A DNA stretch of 20,151 nucleotides from a virus, in IMG/VR virus record IMGVR_UViG_3300017771_000167, positions 1 through 20,151 of that record, one strand, 5' to 3'. The notes below the pieces were generated by a model, which did not search any database, was not told where the DNA came from, and worked only from the letters and a program-made list of their open reading frames with translations. A program made the position numbers and the translations under genes. Positions 2-18,214 of this stretch are shown piece by piece; the stretch's first letter is position 1; every line of letters starts with the position of its first letter.

Positions 2-2575
2 ACAATTCCTAACCTCGCAACTTCGAAGATAAACAGTGGCACTTTCGCTAACGCTAGAATTTCTGAGTCTAACGTCACGCAACACCAAGCCGCTCTGACG
101 CTTGCGTCAGGTCAGATTACGGGCGCACTAGGTTTCACGCCTATTTCTACTGAAACTGACGATCAAACTCTAGACGAGGTTCTGGCTCAGGGTAACACTT
201 CAAGCAGGAACATTACCGCTGGAGCCATTACAGGTTCCGCGCTCACCATTGATACTGATACACTTTTTGTTGATTCGTCTAATAACAGGGTTGGTATAGG
301 AACAACAAGTCCAGATGAATTATTTCATGTAAAAGGTAGCGCTACAACTCTAAAGGCAAAGATTGAATCCACAGGCAGTAACTCATACCCAACCTTAAGA
401 TTAACGAATGATGCACGTACATATGATTTACAAATTGATGGAGCAACAGACGCTTTTCGTATTTACGATTCAACAGGTACAGTAGAAAGATTTCGTATAA
501 CTTCTGGTGGTGACGTTGGTATAGGAGTAACGAGTCCAGCATCCAAATTACACATAGCAGACAATCATTCTCAATTAAGGCTCGAAGATACAGATGACAG
601 TAAATTTTTACTACATAGCTACTCTGGAGGTAAATATGTAGTTAGAAATAATTCAACAAGCACAACAGTAAATCAATTTACTTTAACTGAAGATGGAAAA
701 TTTGGTATAGGCACAATAAGTCCAGCTTATCCTTTTGCCTTAGAGAATAGTGGGACAGGATTAATAGCAAGAATATATAATACCAATGCTGATGGTGATG
801 GAGTGCTTATTAGAGCTGGATCAACCTCATCTGCAACTAGAGCATTACAAGTAGCTTCTACTAACGATACTAAAATTTTAACAGTTAATTCTAATGGCAG
901 AGTTGGAATAACAACAACAAGTCCAGACTATCTCTTAGATATAGGAGGTGATACAGGTAGCGCCGATAACACAATCAGAATGGTTCAAGCTAATAATGGA
1001 ACCGCTATAAGAATAGGAGCTGGTGGAGGCTCTAATGATGTAAATCTTTTGAGGGTCGATGGAAATGGCGGGACAGACAACAGGGGAGAGAGTGACTCTT
1101 CTAATTACGGATTCTCTCTAAGATACAAGGGTTCAGGATCAGGGGCTAATAATTCTTTAGCAGTTTTTGCTGATAATTCAACTGCTGGTTCTCAAATTGA
1201 AGCTCTTTCTATTTTGCAAGACGGTAAAGTAGGTGTAGGAGCAACTGCTCCTGATTCTCTACTTCATTTAGCATCAACAGGACCAGCGGTATTGACTATT
1301 GAAGCGGATACCGATAATGCAACTGAAACAGATAATGCTCGTATCGTCTTAAAACAAGATGGCGCACTAGTAGTCGGCAGAATGGGATATGAAAACGACA
1401 CTAATGCATTAGAATTTATTAATGAATTTAATGATAGCTTATCTCTAGGAACAAATAATACAAAAAGATTCACTATTACTGGGGCTGGTGATGCGTCTTT
1501 TACTGGTTCTGTTGGTATAAATACAAGTAGCCCGGGGCAGAAATTGCATGTATATCAAGGGACTGCAAAATTTGAATCAACAAATGGTAATGATGTTTCA
1601 TTGCAGCTTGGTCGCAGTGATGTAGCCAACCTATGGAATTTCAACCACGCTGGTAATGATTTAAGAATATATAACTCAGGTGGATCGGGGTACGATATCT
1701 TGTTCGGAGTTAATTCGGGTGGTACGTCACAGTCCAATAAGGTAGGTATAAATACAGCGAGTCCGTCTCACCAACTAGATGTTAATGGGACGTTTCAGGC
1801 TGTTGGAGACGCAACCTTCGATGCAAATGTTAATGCGGCTGGAGTCATAACTACTGGTGGAAATACCGAAGCCGAAGTAAAGAGTTGGCTCCATGTGGGA
1901 AGAATGTGGTCATTTAATGGCTTACCCGGTTTCTCTAAAGACTCTGGAGCTGCCGCAGCTAGAAGCGATGGTGTGGCCCCCGGTTCACTCTCAACTGGTG
2001 CGGCGGCTAGTCGTAGAGCGATGATGACTCTTATCAGGAATACATATAATGATTATGGAGGCTATTCTGGTGCTGGTCCTGATTATAGTCGCGCAATCGG
2101 CGCATCTATTAAGCTTGCATTTTTTGCAAACGGTCAAAACTCTTCTATAGTAAGATTATTGGTTGGATCGCCCTCTAGCGTTAGTAGCACACCATATGCT
2201 GACGAAGACCCTCTTTCGAATCATGGCTTTGGTGTTGAATTTAGGCGAGGTTCTGGCAGCACATATGAGTGGAGAGTATTCGGGCATAACGGGACATCAT
2301 TAACCGCTTCTACTTTTACAAGCACTGGTATCACATATACTACCGATCCTCGCACTATCGCGGTTTATAGTGATGGAGCTGGTAACATTACAGCTTATAC
2401 AGCTTTGTATGGATCTACAAGTTACACAACAGCAACAACAACTGGGGGGCCAACAGCTACAGCTGGGGGAATGAGTACCTACACCTCCATTCAAGTCGCT
2501 ACAAATGATAGCGGTTATGTCTCAGGCGCATCAGCTAAATGTGTCTTTATTGGGGCAAACTTTTACGCAGAATAA
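2..2575 (+). CDS. Tail-fibre / receptor-binding-like structural protein (5' partial)
   Basis: The frame is open from the left edge to TAA at 2573-2575, so about 857 residues of a longer protein are visible; the GTG at 803 is internal and not the true start. Seven copies of a VGIGTTSP-like motif are seen, at 290-313, 515-538, 701-724 (FGIGTISP), 902-925, 1229-1252, 1511-1534 and 1742-1765, spaced 62-109 residues apart. They are usually followed by a short hydrophobic strand such as LFHV, LHIA or LLDI. This repeat plan is common in marine phage tail fibres, where each unit probably forms a beta-rich shaft segment. After the last repeat (about residue 590) the sequence turns into a Gly/Ser/Thr/Ala-rich globular C-terminus without the motif, the likely host-binding head. 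No trypsin-like or chaperone autocleavage motif was recognised. The function is inferred from repeat type and composition. Confidence 0.82.
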   Translation, partial: TIPNLATSKINSGTFANARISESNVTQHQAALTLASGQITGALGFTPISTETDDQTLDEVLAQGNTSSRNITAGAITGSALTIDTDTLFVDSSNNRVGIGTTSPDELFHVKGSATTLKAKIESTGSNSYPTLRLTNDARTYDLQIDGATDAFRIYDSTGTVERFRITSGGDVGIGVTSPASKLHIADNHSQLRLEDTDDSKFLLHSYSGGKYVVRNNSTSTTVNQFTLTEDGKFGIGTISPAYPFALENSGTGLIARIYNTNADGDGVLIRAGSTSSATRALQVASTNDTKILTVNSNGRVGITTTSPDYLLDIGGDTGSADNTIRMVQANNGTAIRIGAGGGSNDVNLLRVDGNGGTDNRGESDSSNYGFSLRYKGSGSGANNSLAVFADNSTAGSQIEALSILQDGKVGVGATAPDSLLHLASTGPAVLTIEADTDNATETDNARIVLKQDGALVVGRMGYENDTNALEFINEFNDSLSLGTNNTKRFTITGAGDASFTGSVGINTSSPGQKLHVYQGTAKFESTNGNDVSLQLGRSDVANLWNFNHAGNDLRIYNSGGSGYDILFGVNSGGTSQSNKVGINTASPSHQLDVNGTFQAVGDATFDANVNAAGVITTGGNTEAEVKSWLHVGRMWSFNGLPGFSKDSGAAAARSDGVAPGSLSTGAAASRRAMMTLIRNTYNDYGGYSGAGPDYSRAIGASIKLAFFANGQNSSIVRLLVGSPSSVSSTPYADEDPLSNHGFGVEFRRGSGSTYEWRVFGHNGTSLTASTFTSTGITYTTDPRTIAVYSDGAGNITAYTALYGSTSYTTATTTGGPTATAGGMSTYTSIQVATNDSGYVSGASAKCVFIGANFYAE

Positions 2576-7503: not shown

Positions 7504-8127
7504 ATGAAAAATACAGTAGAATTACTTGGATATTATGGATCTGATGAGGTTATCGCTTGTAGCGCATGGACTTCAACAAGTAGAGAGTTAGATGAAAAGA
7601 AAAGAGAGAGAATTCCGAAGCTCATCGACATGCTTTGGAGTAACGGACATGAGACACCCTTTGAAAAGGGTAGTGTACACTTTCTTGTTGATTGTGATAT
7701 CGCCAGCCATATACATTTACTTAAACATAGGATTTCTTCGCTCAATGCTGAATCGGCTCGCTACAAAGAGCTTAAAGAAAATAAAATGTTTATTCCTGAA
7801 GATTGGCCAGCTTTTTGGCAGGAAATGTTAGTGTCTTATACACAAAAAGGGAATGAGCTTTACCACCAATGCATCGCTGAACTTGAGCCAGAGTTAGGGC
7901 GTAAACGAGCAAAGGAATCCGCACGGTTCTTTAAGACTTACAATAGTCGCATTCAAGCAGACGTTCAATTCAACATGAGAAGCTTTGCCAACTTCCTAAA
8001 ACTTAGGAATAGTGAACATGCTCAGAAAGAAATTAGAGAAATCGCTCAAAAGATGCTTGACTTGGTTGAGAATATCGAAGAGAATCCATTTAAGCACACT
8101 TTAAATAGTTGGCACAAAACATTATGA
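7504..8127 (+). CDS. thyX: Flavin-dependent thymidylate synthase ThyX
   Basis: ThyX makes dTMP from dUMP using methylene-tetrahydrofolate, FAD and NADPH, supplying thymidine for phage DNA. At 207 residues it has normal length. The signature RHR-x7-S appears as KHRISSLNAES (residues 74-84) with Lys replacing the first Arg, followed by ARYKEL. Also present are GHETPFEKG (about 48-56) and, near the C-terminus, FNMRSFANFLKLRNSEHAQ then EIREIAQKM, matching the dUMP/FAD-binding R-x-x-x-x-A-Q-x-E-I-R segment. The Lys for Arg change is conservative but worth noting. The leader is A-rich without a Shine-Dalgarno. The downstream gene starts in its stop codon (ATGA). Confidence 0.93.
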   Translation: MKNTVELLGYYGSDEVIACSAWTSTSRELDEKKRERIPKLIDMLWSNGHETPFEKGSVHFLVDCDIASHIHLLKHRISSLNAESARYKELKENKMFIPEDWPAFWQEMLVSYTQKGNELYHQCIAELEPELGRKRAKESARFFKTYNSRIQADVQFNMRSFANFLKLRNSEHAQKEIREIAQKMLDLVENIEENPFKHTLNSWHKTL

Positions 8128-11795: not shown

Positions 11796-11871
11796 GCGCT
11801 TGTAGCTCAGTGGTTAGAGCAGGGGTCTCATAAACCCTTGGTCGTGAGTTCGAATCTCACCAGGCGCACCA
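11796..11871 (+). tRNA. tRNA with CAT anticodon (Met, or Ile2 if lysidine-modified)
   Basis: This 76-base cloverleaf has acceptor GCGCTTG with CAGGCGC, the D-arm TAGCTCAGTGGTTAGAGC, anticodon arm GGGGT-CTCATAA-ACCCT, T-arm GTGAG-TTCGAAT-CTCAC, discriminator A and an encoded CCA (11869-11871). The TTGGTC after the anticodon stem recalls E. coli tRNA-Ile2, so reading AUA after lysidine modification is as likely as elongator Met. Confidence 0.92.
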
Positions 11872-11912: not shown

Positions 11913-13052
11913 ATGAACCCTATTTCTCTTCACTGCTGCAAACAAATCGATGACCTGTTAGATGACTCCATGAGTATGGAGACTAACGGAAGGGTCTTCA
12001 TCTCTCAAGATCATGCGACTTCTGGTTATATGAGGAATGAAGATTTGTGGTGTGCAGACTTAGATATTACATGCGTATCTCCGTGGAATAGTAGCGGAGG
12101 TCATAAGAAAGCGGGGACACTGGTGACTCCAAGACACGTCATAGGAGCGACACACTATGAATATTCTGTGGGCGCGGTGGTTAGGTTTGTGGAGAAAGAC
12201 GGGACGGTTCATGACCGCACTGTGGCCGGAAAAGCCCGACACCCTGACTACAGCCCCCACATTCCAGACTTAACGATCTATACTTTAGATGGTGATCTTC
12301 CCTCAACTATATCGCCTTGCTCTGTAATGCCTAGCGATCACGGTGACTACTTAGATAGTAATTCTAAGATACCTTGCCTTGGGCTTGACCAAGAAGAGAA
12401 AGCCCTCATCATTGATTGGCGCTCTGGAGGTAGGATGCAGACACCTACAGATCCGAAAAGGCTTATTTTTCATGAGAATAAAATCGGTGGCGATAGCGGA
12501 AACCCTGCATTTTTAGTTTTCGACGGTAAGCCTGTACTTGTGACTGTCTGGACATGGGGTGGGGCAGGAGGTGGGACTCCCGTGGCAGATTATATTTCAG
12601 ATATTAACGCCATGATCGAGACCGCTGACACACGGGCAGGTGTATCCACAAACTATACAATTACTGAAGCGGATTTCTCAACTCGCGGTAACAAAATCTT
12701 CAATGCGGGAAAATGTAGCGCTCAATTCGAAGCTAAACTTCGTGAGTCAAGACCTAGCTGGTTTGAGAACAGCGCCGAGACCAGCGCCGAGACCAGCGCC
12801 GAATATACGAGTGCGGAAACCAGCGCGGAATATACGAGTGCGGAAACCAGCGCCGAGACGAGTGCTGAATATACCAGTGCGGAAACCAGCGCCGAGACGA
12901 GTGCTGAATATACCAGTGCGGAAACCAGCGCCGAGACGAGTGCGGAATATACCAGTGCCGAATACAGCAGTGCCGAATACAGCAGTTCTGAATCAAGCTC
13001 TGAGCCGCCTCGGGAAACCAGTGCGGAGTCTAGTTCAGAGGGTTTTTTTTAA
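11913..13052 (+). CDS. Trypsin-like serine protease with SAET/SAEYT repeat tail
   Basis: This 379-residue protein has a chymotrypsin-fold layout. GTLVTPRHVIGATH carries the catalytic His (H75), IPDLTIYTLDGDLP the Asp (D119), and IGGDSGNPAF the nucleophile Ser in a GDSG motif (S195). After it come VTVWTWGGAGGG, the expected substrate-pocket strand, and DYISDINAMIE. All three triad residues are present, so the enzyme is probably active. No signal peptide is seen (MNPISLHCCK start). From about residue 287 a low-complexity tail of SAET and SAEYT units follows, ending in Ser/Glu. Phage-encoded proteases of this class are uncommon. It may be a virion-borne or anti-host protease. The gene sits behind a tRNA. 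Confidence 0.82.
   Translation: MNPISLHCCKQIDDLLDDSMSMETNGRVFISQDHATSGYMRNEDLWCADLDITCVSPWNSSGGHKKAGTLVTPRHVIGATHYEYSVGAVVRFVEKDGTVHDRTVAGKARHPDYSPHIPDLTIYTLDGDLPSTISPCSVMPSDHGDYLDSNSKIPCLGLDQEEKALIIDWRSGGRMQTPTDPKRLIFHENKIGGDSGNPAFLVFDGKPVLVTVWTWGGAGGGTPVADYISDINAMIETADTRAGVSTNYTITEADFSTRGNKIFNAGKCSAQFEAKLRESRPSWFENSAETSAETSAEYTSAETSAEYTSAETSAETSAEYTSAETSAETSAEYTSAETSAETSAEYTSAEYSSAEYSSSESSSEPPRETSAESSSEGFF
12771..12990 (+). repeat. Tandem repeat encoding SAET / SAEYT units
   Basis: Units of 12 bases (SAET) and 15 bases (SAEYT) alternate. A 39-base higher-order unit (SAET-SAET-SAEYT) occurs three times in a row with only a few silent changes. Because the units are multiples of three and free of stops, the other frames stay open too. 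Confidence 0.9.
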
Positions 13053-13086
13053 AAATAATTAAAGCTATTTTAATTCTCTTAGGAGT

Positions 13087-13698
13087 ATGGAAGAAAAATT
13101 AAATGTAAGCAAAATCAAGTTATTCACAATAATTTTAACATGTGAGAAATATGAGCATAAAATGTTGTCACAAGACACATCGAAACTTAAAGATTACATG
13201 TATTTTATTGGTAACCCTGCGTTATCTTCGCCTTTAGTTAAGGGAGATATAGTCTATTTGCCTTGCCCAGACAATTATGAAAGCCTAACCCTCAAAACTT
13301 TAATGGCTATTAAGTGGGTGGTTGAAAATAAAGAGTTTGATTTACTGTTAAAAACAGATGACGATGTTACTTTTTTAGATCGTTTTGATGAGATCGTTTG
13401 CCAAGCTTCAAATTATGATTATTCTGGCGCTTTGCGTAGAGGAGGTTATGTATCTACTTGGCATCATGGAAAATGCGAGAATAAAGTATTAGACAATGCA
13501 ATGTTTAAGATTCCACTAATGATTTATTGTCATGGGGGGGGATACTTCTTGTCTAAGAAATCAGCTTTGCTTTTAGCGAACAACGAGATTAGAGATAATC
13601 ACTCTATTTATGAAGACGTAGAGGTTGGAGATTTGTTGCAAAAATTTGGAATTATCGCAGATGGTATTCTAGCGAAAGAGGGGATTTTCTGGCCATGA
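13087..13698 (+). CDS. GT31-like glycosyltransferase
   Basis: This 203-residue protein resembles the beta-1,3-galactosyltransferase family (GT31). The N-terminus FTIILTCEKYEHKM fits the first Rossmann strand. YESLTLKTLMAIKWVVEN (residues 64-81) matches the D-x-Y-x-N-L-T-L-K-T block, and LLLKTDDDVTFL (86-97) has the metal-binding DDD. YCHGGGYFLSKKSA (147-160) and YEDVEVGDLL (175-184) match the G-x-G-Y-x-L-S and E-D-V motifs. It would transfer a sugar from a UDP-sugar with manganese, in the cytoplasm, with no membrane anchor. AGGAG lies one base before the ATG, closer than is usual for a Shine-Dalgarno. The stop overlaps the next gene (ATGA). Confidence 0.78.
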   Translation: MEEKLNVSKIKLFTIILTCEKYEHKMLSQDTSKLKDYMYFIGNPALSSPLVKGDIVYLPCPDNYESLTLKTLMAIKWVVENKEFDLLLKTDDDVTFLDRFDEIVCQASNYDYSGALRRGGYVSTWHHGKCENKVLDNAMFKIPLMIYCHGGGYFLSKKSALLLANNEIRDNHSIYEDVEVGDLLQKFGIIADGILAKEGIFWP

Positions 13699-17311: not shown

Positions 17312-18214
17312 ATGTTTGAAAGACTTGTAGGTCAGAGCGAAGTCAAGGGTCGCCTTGATTTCTATGCTAAAGCTCACAAAGCTGGCTCTATCATTCCACC
17401 CATCATGCTCAACGGAGCTAAAGGTTTAGGTAAGACTGAGTTCGCTAAGGAGTTCGCTAAGGGAATCAAAAGAAAACTTCTTGAGATTAACTGCGGGACA
17501 ATCCGCAATGCTCAACAGTTTTTTGAACAGGTCTTCATGCCAGCTATCGCTGGAGAGGAGATCACTGTCCTTTTGGATGAGTGTCATGCCTTACCTAAAG
17601 ATTTGACTGAGGTGTTCTTGACGGTGTTCAACACTGAGGGGAGCAAGAGTAAGCAGGTTTCCATTGGAGAAGGTTTCGCTACATTCGACTTTGAAAAGCA
17701 GAATTTCTTGTTTGCTACTACAGAACTTCACAAAATCTTCGATCCATTGAAGGATCGTATGACCATCGTCGATTTCAAGCCTTATGTTTCCAAGGAGCTT
17801 GCTCACATCATTCAGAAGAAAATTGATTGGGTTCAGTTCGATAAGGTTGTCCTTGATCAGATTGCTGACACCGTTCGTGGTAACGCTCGTAGCGCAATCA
17901 AAAGAGCTTTGGAGATCAAAGCATTCTGCGAGATCAATAATAATCCAAAGGTGGATGCAAAAGCTTGGCTTAAAATAAAACAAATCTTGGGGATCAAACC
18001 ACAGGGTTTAACTAACCTTGAGGTCCAGATCCTTGACATTCTCAAATCTAACGGTCCTAGCTCCTTCCAGATGCTGTCTGCTGTCACTGGGATGTCCCGC
18101 TCTGCCATCCAGCTTGAGGCGGAGAACAATCTACTTCGCAGTGGATTCATGGAGATCGACGGTAAGCGTAAGATCACAGTCAAGGGAACAAACATATTGA
18201 AGGAGTTAGCATGA
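17312..18214 (+). CDS. RuvB-like AAA+ ATPase
   Basis: This 300-residue protein has a full AAA+ core: Walker A GAKGLGKT (residues 35-42), Walker B VLLDECHALP (86-95), sensor 1 FLFATTEL (132-139), arginine-finger-like DPLKDRM (144-150) and sensor 2 RGNARSAIKRAL (189-200). The C-terminal winged-helix-like part is GLTNLEVQILDIL then a helix-turn-helix (about 242-285). Order and motifs match the Holliday-junction branch-migration helicase RuvB, though Walker B has DECH where RuvB has DEIH. It may replace RuvB or act as a clamp-loader-like motor in phage DNA repair or replication. No RuvA or RuvC is visible here. Confidence 0.85.
   Translation: MFERLVGQSEVKGRLDFYAKAHKAGSIIPPIMLNGAKGLGKTEFAKEFAKGIKRKLLEINCGTIRNAQQFFEQVFMPAIAGEEITVLLDECHALPKDLTEVFLTVFNTEGSKSKQVSIGEGFATFDFEKQNFLFATTELHKIFDPLKDRMTIVDFKPYVSKELAHIIQKKIDWVQFDKVVLDQIADTVRGNARSAIKRALEIKAFCEINNNPKVDAKAWLKIKQILGIKPQGLTNLEVQILDILKSNGPSSFQMLSAVTGMSRSAIQLEAENNLLRSGFMEIDGKRKITVKGTNILKELA

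What the first reader, a model, noticed from the sequence alone, without database searches (positions are those of the whole stretch)
11913..13052. Phage serine protease with intact triad and SAET/SAEYT repeat tail
A chymotrypsin-fold protease (H75, D119, S195) without a signal peptide is uncommon in phages. It is joined to an acidic Ser/Thr/Glu/Tyr repeat tail of 12- and 15-base units. The tail may be a linker, an attachment or glycosylation platform, or a variable region that changes length by repeat slippage. It may be a virion protease, a defence or anti-defence effector, or a toxin for the host.
Basis: partly seen in the sequence, partly recalled or inferred. Interest (0 to 1): 0.68.

Follow-up and report, generated by a model that had tools for sequence, protein, structure and literature searches.

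The report
Swappable phage protease on repeat stalk
An uncultured marine phage carries an intact trypsin-like enzyme joined to a flexible, length-variable serine/threonine/glutamate stalk; related phages carry a quite different beta-propeller domain on the same stalk at the same genome position, so it looks like one interchangeable head of a modular phage surface protein.

Summary
The ORF at 11913-13052 (379 aa) is an S1-type (chymotrypsin-fold) protease domain followed by a 93-aa SAET/SAEYT repeat tail. H75, D119 and S195 are invariant across 19 relatives spanning 30-84% identity. The AlphaFold model (pLDDT 87) matches solved trypsin-like proteases, dN/dS is 0.10-0.19, and no signal peptide is evident.

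Relatives lie in virion gene clusters: beside a portal gene, just before tape-measure genes, and after virion proteins in an annotated podovirus. In the window's own phage group the gene sits just behind a tRNA-Met. There, relatives hold either this protease or a virginiamycin-B-lyase-like propeller, both on the same SAET linker. All 16 viral contigs with an exact SAET/SAEYT DNA match carry this gene family.

The stalk changes length: near-identical contigs (99.2-99.8%) differ there by whole repeat units. A 137-bp linker stretch is shared at 97% between a protease gene and a propeller gene.

Best reading: a virion- or envelope-acting fibre-like protein with exchangeable heads. Virion location is inferred; glycosylation by neighbouring glycosyltransferases is only suggested. 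New variant of a known kind; interest 0.55.

The parts
11913..13052 (+). Whole gene: S1-type protease with SAET/SAEYT repeat tail (379 aa)
   Evidence: ORF and translation
11913..12692 (+). Chymotrypsin-fold protease domain (about residues 1-260)
   Evidence: Alignment A2, AlphaFold model, Foldseek against PDB, profile match to trypsins
12135..12137 (+). Catalytic His75 codon
   Evidence: Invariant in A2 and A5
12267..12269 (+). Catalytic Asp119 codon
   Evidence: Invariant in A2 and A5
12495..12497 (+). Catalytic Ser195 codon (GDSGNP)
   Evidence: Invariant in A2 and A5; local pLDDT below 50 at residues 192-195
12705..12749 (+). Predicted C-terminal helix (residues 265-279) joining protease to tail
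   Evidence: Secondary structure of the model
12771..13049 (+). Acidic Ser/Thr/Glu/Tyr repeat tail (residues 287-379), 12- and 15-bp units
   Evidence: unit-number differences between near-identical relatives
13041..13050 (+). GG + T8 run coding GFF-stop; relatives with the propeller read through the same GFF junction (GFFLD...)
   Evidence: DNA comparison of tail ends and proteins
11796..11871 (+). tRNA-Met (CAT) that borders the slot on the 5' side, 41 nt before the start codon
   Evidence: ARAGORN
13087..13698 (+). Glycosyltransferase (Pfam Galactosyl_T, GT31-like) that borders the slot on the 3' side here and in several relatives; functional link to the tail is hypothetical
   Evidence: PF01762 E 2e-16; shared with L017 at 76% DNA identity
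13695..14357 (+). Glycosyltransferase with DXD sugar-binding region (PF04488); link to the tail hypothetical
   Evidence: E 2.4e-14

Best explanation
The gene encodes one form of a modular, fibre-like phage protein: a globular head (here an S1 protease) carried on a flexible, acidic Ser/Thr/Glu repeat stalk. The head acts outside the infected cell, most likely displayed on the virion, where the protease would cut surface proteins or matrix of the next host during adsorption; relatives use a beta-propeller head instead. Shown: protease fold and conserved triad; same stalk on two unrelated heads at one tRNA-Met slot; stalk length varies by whole units; stalk DNA is exchanged between protease and propeller genes; related proteases of other phages lie among virion genes. 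Inferred: catalytic activity, virion location in this phage group, substrate, and that the stalk works as a spacer whose length and head are swapped to change host interaction.
For: Triad and fold; purifying selection, dN/dS 0.10-0.19. Relatives among virion genes: next to a portal gene (phrog_213, E 2e-88) in a 212-kb phage with a gp23-type capsid (L044); 0.4 kb before a tape-measure gene (L055) and two genes before a tape-measure gene (L061, Anabaena lutea); after internal virion and structural proteins and a lyase, before an fN3 gene in annotated podovirus MW202510.1. A related GDSGSP domain is fused into another ORF family (L016 3705-4790). Head swap: window and L017 share tRNA-Met (95%), SAET repeats (70-76%) and GT31 gene (76%) while the protease part has no counterpart. 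tRNA-Met lies 17-48 or 186 nt upstream in 18/18 SAET-protease and 14/14 SAET-propeller loci with enough upstream sequence. Protease and propeller are fused in one ORF in L036-L038 and adjacent in L030. Stalk exchange: 137 bp at 97% between the L001 protease gene and L017 propeller gene, including non-repetitive sequence. Length change: 12, 12, 24, 36 and 18 bp between contigs 99.2-99.8% identical. No signal peptide, as expected for virion proteins assembled in the cytoplasm.
Against: In the window the gene is not inside a recognised structural module; it lies between tRNAs, small ORFs, glycosyltransferases and an endolysin-like amidase. No member of this phage group is cultured and no virion proteome was available. 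Several relatives are only known from contigs without capsid genes. A test for T4-type late-promoter boxes gave no enrichment, so late expression is not shown. Repeat-length differences could partly be short-read assembly effects.
Confidence: 0.52

Rival explanations
1. The protease is a soluble lysis-stage or released enzyme: it is made late, freed together with the neighbouring amidase, and helps degrade host envelope or debris; the stalk keeps it soluble.
For: An Amidase_2 endolysin-like gene lies close downstream in the window and in many relatives, and close upstream in the GIGST-type phages. Bacterial relatives are exported proteins.
Against: The alternative head, a beta-propeller, has no obvious lytic role, and other lineages place the protease among virion genes.
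Confidence: 0.2
2. Intracellular effector: a host-takeover or anti-defence protease acting in the infected cell.
For: No signal peptide; gene sits in a region of small accessory ORFs.
Against: The tail and head-swap pattern suit a displayed or exported protein; PADLOC gives only a low-complexity match; relatives in virion clusters.
Confidence: 0.1
3. The stalk is chiefly a glycosylation platform: the neighbouring glycosyltransferases (GT31-, GT32-, GT25-, GT14-like), sulfotransferases and UDP-glucose dehydrogenase decorate its Ser/Thr residues. This can be true together with the best explanation.
For: Glycan genes within 1 kb in 10 of 14 non-redundant SAET-protease loci against 1 of 17 linkerless protease loci (0 of 11 with both flanks longer than 1 kb); Sulfotransfer_2, Glyco_transf_25, UDPG_MGDP_dh and epimerase families by Pfam.
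Against: The gene families were chosen because they were seen next door, so the distance test is biased; L001, L004 and L025 have the stalk without such neighbours; such enzymes also occur elsewhere in these genomes. Loci are related by descent.
Confidence: 0.18

Closest known systems
S1 (chymotrypsin/trypsin) serine proteases, Pfam PF00089
   Same: Fold, order of His-Asp-Ser, GDSG motif
   Different: Very diverged (window protein itself gives no Pfam hit); has its own invariant DQEEKA motif; GDSGNP instead of the usual GDSGGP; sits in phages on a repeat stalk
Exported S1-like proteases of Verrucomicrobiota and related bacteria (found here, unnamed)
   Same: Same family by sequence, 26-52% identity outside phage-like contigs, DQEEK and GDSGNP motifs
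   Different: Bacterial forms carry signal or lipoprotein peptides and no SAET tail
Virginiamycin B lyase-type seven-bladed propellers (PDB 2z2n)
   Same: Fold of the alternative head (E 9e-14, TM 0.70-0.80)
   Different: 17% identity only; lyase activity not tested; phage form carried on the repeat stalk
Beta-propeller heads on flexible shafts in fibres of extracellular contractile injection systems (PMC12923769)
   Same: Exchangeable propeller head joined to a flexible shaft
   Different: Those shafts are collagen-like; here Ser/Thr/Glu repeats, and the alternative head is a protease
Trypsin-like serine protease listed for T4-like Sinorhizobium phage cluster N (PMC10783043)
   Same: A trypsin-like protease gene in large T4-like phages
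   Different: Relationship to this family not tested; no repeat stalk reported in the passage read

Membership tests
S1 serine proteases (chymotrypsin fold) | Catalytic His, Asp, Ser in this order with GDSG around Ser | tested here: met
   Invariant in A2 and A5
S1 serine proteases (chymotrypsin fold) | Double beta-barrel fold | tested here: met
   AlphaFold model pLDDT 86.9 and Foldseek probability 1.0 to trypsin-like entries, TM 0.44-0.50 by query and 0.49-0.66 by target
S1 serine proteases (chymotrypsin fold) | Sequence-profile match above the Pfam cut-off | tested here: not met
   Window protein no hit; 5 of 19 members match PF00089 (best E 2e-4), and where the bits were shown they were below the cut-off of 20.6. 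Membership is by fold and motif, not by Pfam threshold
S1 serine proteases (chymotrypsin fold) | Proteolytic activity | not testable with these tools
   Needs enzyme assay
Phage virion (fibre-like) proteins | Gene in virion gene cluster | tested here: inconclusive
   Met for relatives L044, L055, L061 and MW202510.1; not seen around the window gene
Phage virion (fibre-like) proteins | Present in particles | not testable with these tools
   Needs proteomics
Serine-rich repeat glycoproteins | Long Ser-rich repeat region | tested here: met
   93-aa tail with 42 Ser/Thr; much shorter than bacterial examples (own knowledge)
Serine-rich repeat glycoproteins | Dedicated accessory secretion genes and proven O-glycans | not tested
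   Glycosyltransferase genes adjacent, secretion genes not searched for
Known anti-phage defence proteins (PADLOC) | Profile match over the catalytic domain | tested here: not met
   Only a match over tail residues 283-352 to a type I specificity profile, E 2.5e-5

The most novel reading that the evidence does not exclude
A phage-encoded glycoprotein system: phage glycosyltransferases, UDP-glucose dehydrogenase and sulfotransferases build sulfated glycans on a Ser/Thr repeat stalk that carries interchangeable protease or propeller heads on the virion, and stalk length is tuned by repeat slippage.
Probability: 0.15. Interest if true: 0.82.

Novelty: new variant of a known kind. Interest (0 to 1): 0.55.

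Why it matters
It shows a phage surface-type protein evolving by three visible routes at once: exchange of whole heads (protease or propeller) at a fixed tRNA-bordered slot, exchange of stalk DNA between unrelated genes, and change of stalk length by whole repeat units. An extracellular trypsin-like head on a phage particle would be a way of entering hosts with protein surface layers or matrix that is little studied. The arrangement gives a direct, testable model for how uncultured marine phages change host interaction.

Tried and rejected
Plain homology searches with the window protein (Pfam, PHROGs, NCBIfam, PDB sequences) gave nothing; only family profiles and the fold search placed it. PADLOC hit to a type I specificity subunit lies in the low-complexity tail and was rejected. 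A T4-type late promoter (TATAAATA) upstream was considered because TATAAT-like boxes recur near the start codon, but in the 118-kb relative such boxes are no more frequent upstream of genes than in shuffles (15 observed, 16.4 expected): rejected as evidence. A gp23 search to name the phage group found it only in the L044 phage; DNA comparison with annotated phages found none close, so the host is unknown. Glycan-gene clustering: density 2.25 per 10 kb within 1 kb against 0.14 at 4-8 kb, but gene families were picked from the neighbourhood, so this is not an unbiased test. First automatic HMM iteration for GT31 and propeller was contaminated by fused ORFs (L023, L036) and was redone with fixed seeds. 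Searching for more copies of the L016 fusion found only L016 itself. The DNA pattern for GIGST repeats found nothing, being too strict. In L023 the tail gene reads into the GT31 gene because of one extra T in the T-run; taken as a sequencing or indel event, not shown to be a programmed frameshift. Literature searches found no description of this protein family.

Full report
What is there. The ORF at 11913-13052 (+) codes for 379 aa. Residues 1-260 are a compact domain; a predicted helix (265-279) leads to a 93-residue tail (287-379) made of SAET (12 bp) and SAEYT (15 bp) units. The tail holds 17 SAE motifs where shuffles of its own residues give about 1 (maximum 5 in 5000) and has net charge -20. 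Its codons differ from those of the protease part: Thr is ACC or ACG in 15 of 15 tail codons, but ACT or ACA in 19 of 22 in the protease. This fits growth of the tail by duplication of a few founder units.

Protease identity. Single-sequence searches fail. Relatives were gathered from IMG/VR and GTDB genomes. In an alignment of 19 members, 30-84% identical to the window, H75, D119, S195, the GDSGNP box and a DQEEKA motif are invariant. The profile of this alignment reaches solved trypsins (E 7e-4); 5 of 19 members match Pfam Trypsin, best E 2e-4. The AlphaFold model (pLDDT 86.9, pTM 0.85; low confidence only at 192-195) matches chymotrypsin-fold proteases, best E 2.7e-8. The triad persists in an annotated podovirus protein at 23% identity. 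dN/dS between the window and ten phage relatives is 0.10-0.19; for the three most distant phage relatives dS is saturated. So the domain is kept by selection; activity itself is inferred.

Where relatives live. Bacterial relatives, mostly Verrucomicrobiota and allied phyla, are exported: several have lipoprotein or signal peptides. Phage forms lack them. In a 212-kb phage with a gp23-type capsid gene the protease lies beside a portal gene. In prophage-like stretches of a Puniceicoccaceae MAG and of Anabaena lutea it lies just before the tape-measure gene. In podovirus MW202510.1 it follows internal virion and structural proteins and a lyase gene and precedes an fN3 gene. These are virion neighbourhoods, and Ig-like or other extra domains are fused in front. 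For the window's own phage group the virion location is an inference from these relatives.

The slot and its two heads. In the window's group the gene starts 41 nt after a tRNA-Met. All 18 SAET-protease loci, both SSSG-tail protease loci, and all 14 SAET-propeller loci with enough upstream sequence have a tRNA-Met 19-48 (or 186) nt upstream; an SSSG-class propeller (L138) has it at 17 nt. The second head is a beta-propeller closest to virginiamycin B lyase (model pLDDT 88.5; Foldseek E 9e-14), found in 62 viral loci. Comparing the window with L017: tRNA-Met 95% identical, repeats 70-76%, GT31-like gene 76%, and the protease part has no counterpart because L017 has the propeller there. Other phages fuse protease and propeller in one ORF (L036-L038) or hold both genes with the same SSSG linker (L030). 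Other linker kinds (GIGST, SSSG, SPSAT) are likewise found on both heads. A pattern scan for SAET-SAEYT DNA in 2.9 million viral contigs gave 16 contigs, all already known as carriers of this gene family; one of them (L014) holds only the tail end.

The stalk changes. Contig pairs 99.2-99.8% identical differ in the array by 12 bp (L004/L005), 12 bp (L001/L003), 24 bp (L022/L024), 36 bp (L022/L023) and, in the SPSAT array, 18 bp (L036/L038); in these pairs no other indel longer than 1 bp was seen. Also, 137 bp including a non-repetitive stretch (ADQASHSFNVQNW) is 97% identical between the L001 protease gene and the L017 propeller gene. So stalk DNA moves between unrelated genes. The window protein ends SSSEGFF-stop, the same junction at which propeller proteins continue as GFFLD, which suggests a past join with a propeller-type gene.

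Neighbours. The two genes downstream are glycosyltransferases (PF01762 E 2e-16; PF04488 E 2.4e-14); relatives have sulfotransferase, GT25, epimerase or UDP-glucose dehydrogenase genes nearby. Glycan genes occur within 1 kb in 10 of 14 SAET-protease loci and 1 of 17 linkerless ones. The choice of families was made from the neighbourhood, so I treat stalk glycosylation as a hypothesis only.

Judgement. The finding is real and the protease is intact. Most likely it is one head of a modular, fibre-like protein working outside the cell (0.52), with a lysis-stage enzyme (0.2) and an intracellular effector (0.1) as rivals. It is a new variant of known kinds (S1 protease; modular phage fibre-like protein).

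Noticed in passing
window 2-2575: Large ORF (857 aa, open at the 5' end) matching phage tail-fibre families (PHROG E 8e-16).
   Followed up: no
window 12640-13062: The +1 frame across the repeat array is also open (140 aa, Arg/Pro-rich); probably a by-product of the repeat.
   Followed up: no
L049-L051 (ORF 634 aa): Two protease domains in tandem in one ORF in contigs of 50-153 kb.
   Followed up: no
L016 3705-4790 (-): A GDSGSP protease-like segment fused to a protein otherwise like L017 752-1624, which I suspect (by eye, no profile match) is a tail-tube-like protein; contig ends inside it.
   Followed up: partly
L023 1788-3377: One extra T in the T-run puts the protease-tail gene in frame with the GT31-like gene (529 aa fusion ORF).
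   Followed up: partly
L186-L188, L159-L160: Propeller proteins with Cys-rich SPSATICGSC-type C-terminal repeats.
   Followed up: no
window 17312-18214: AAA ATPase resembling phage clamp loaders and RuvB; closest annotated phages only about 26% identical, so the phage group is far from cultured ones.
   Followed up: partly
window 7504-8127: ThyX-type thymidylate synthase (Pfam Thy1 E 3e-34).
   Followed up: no
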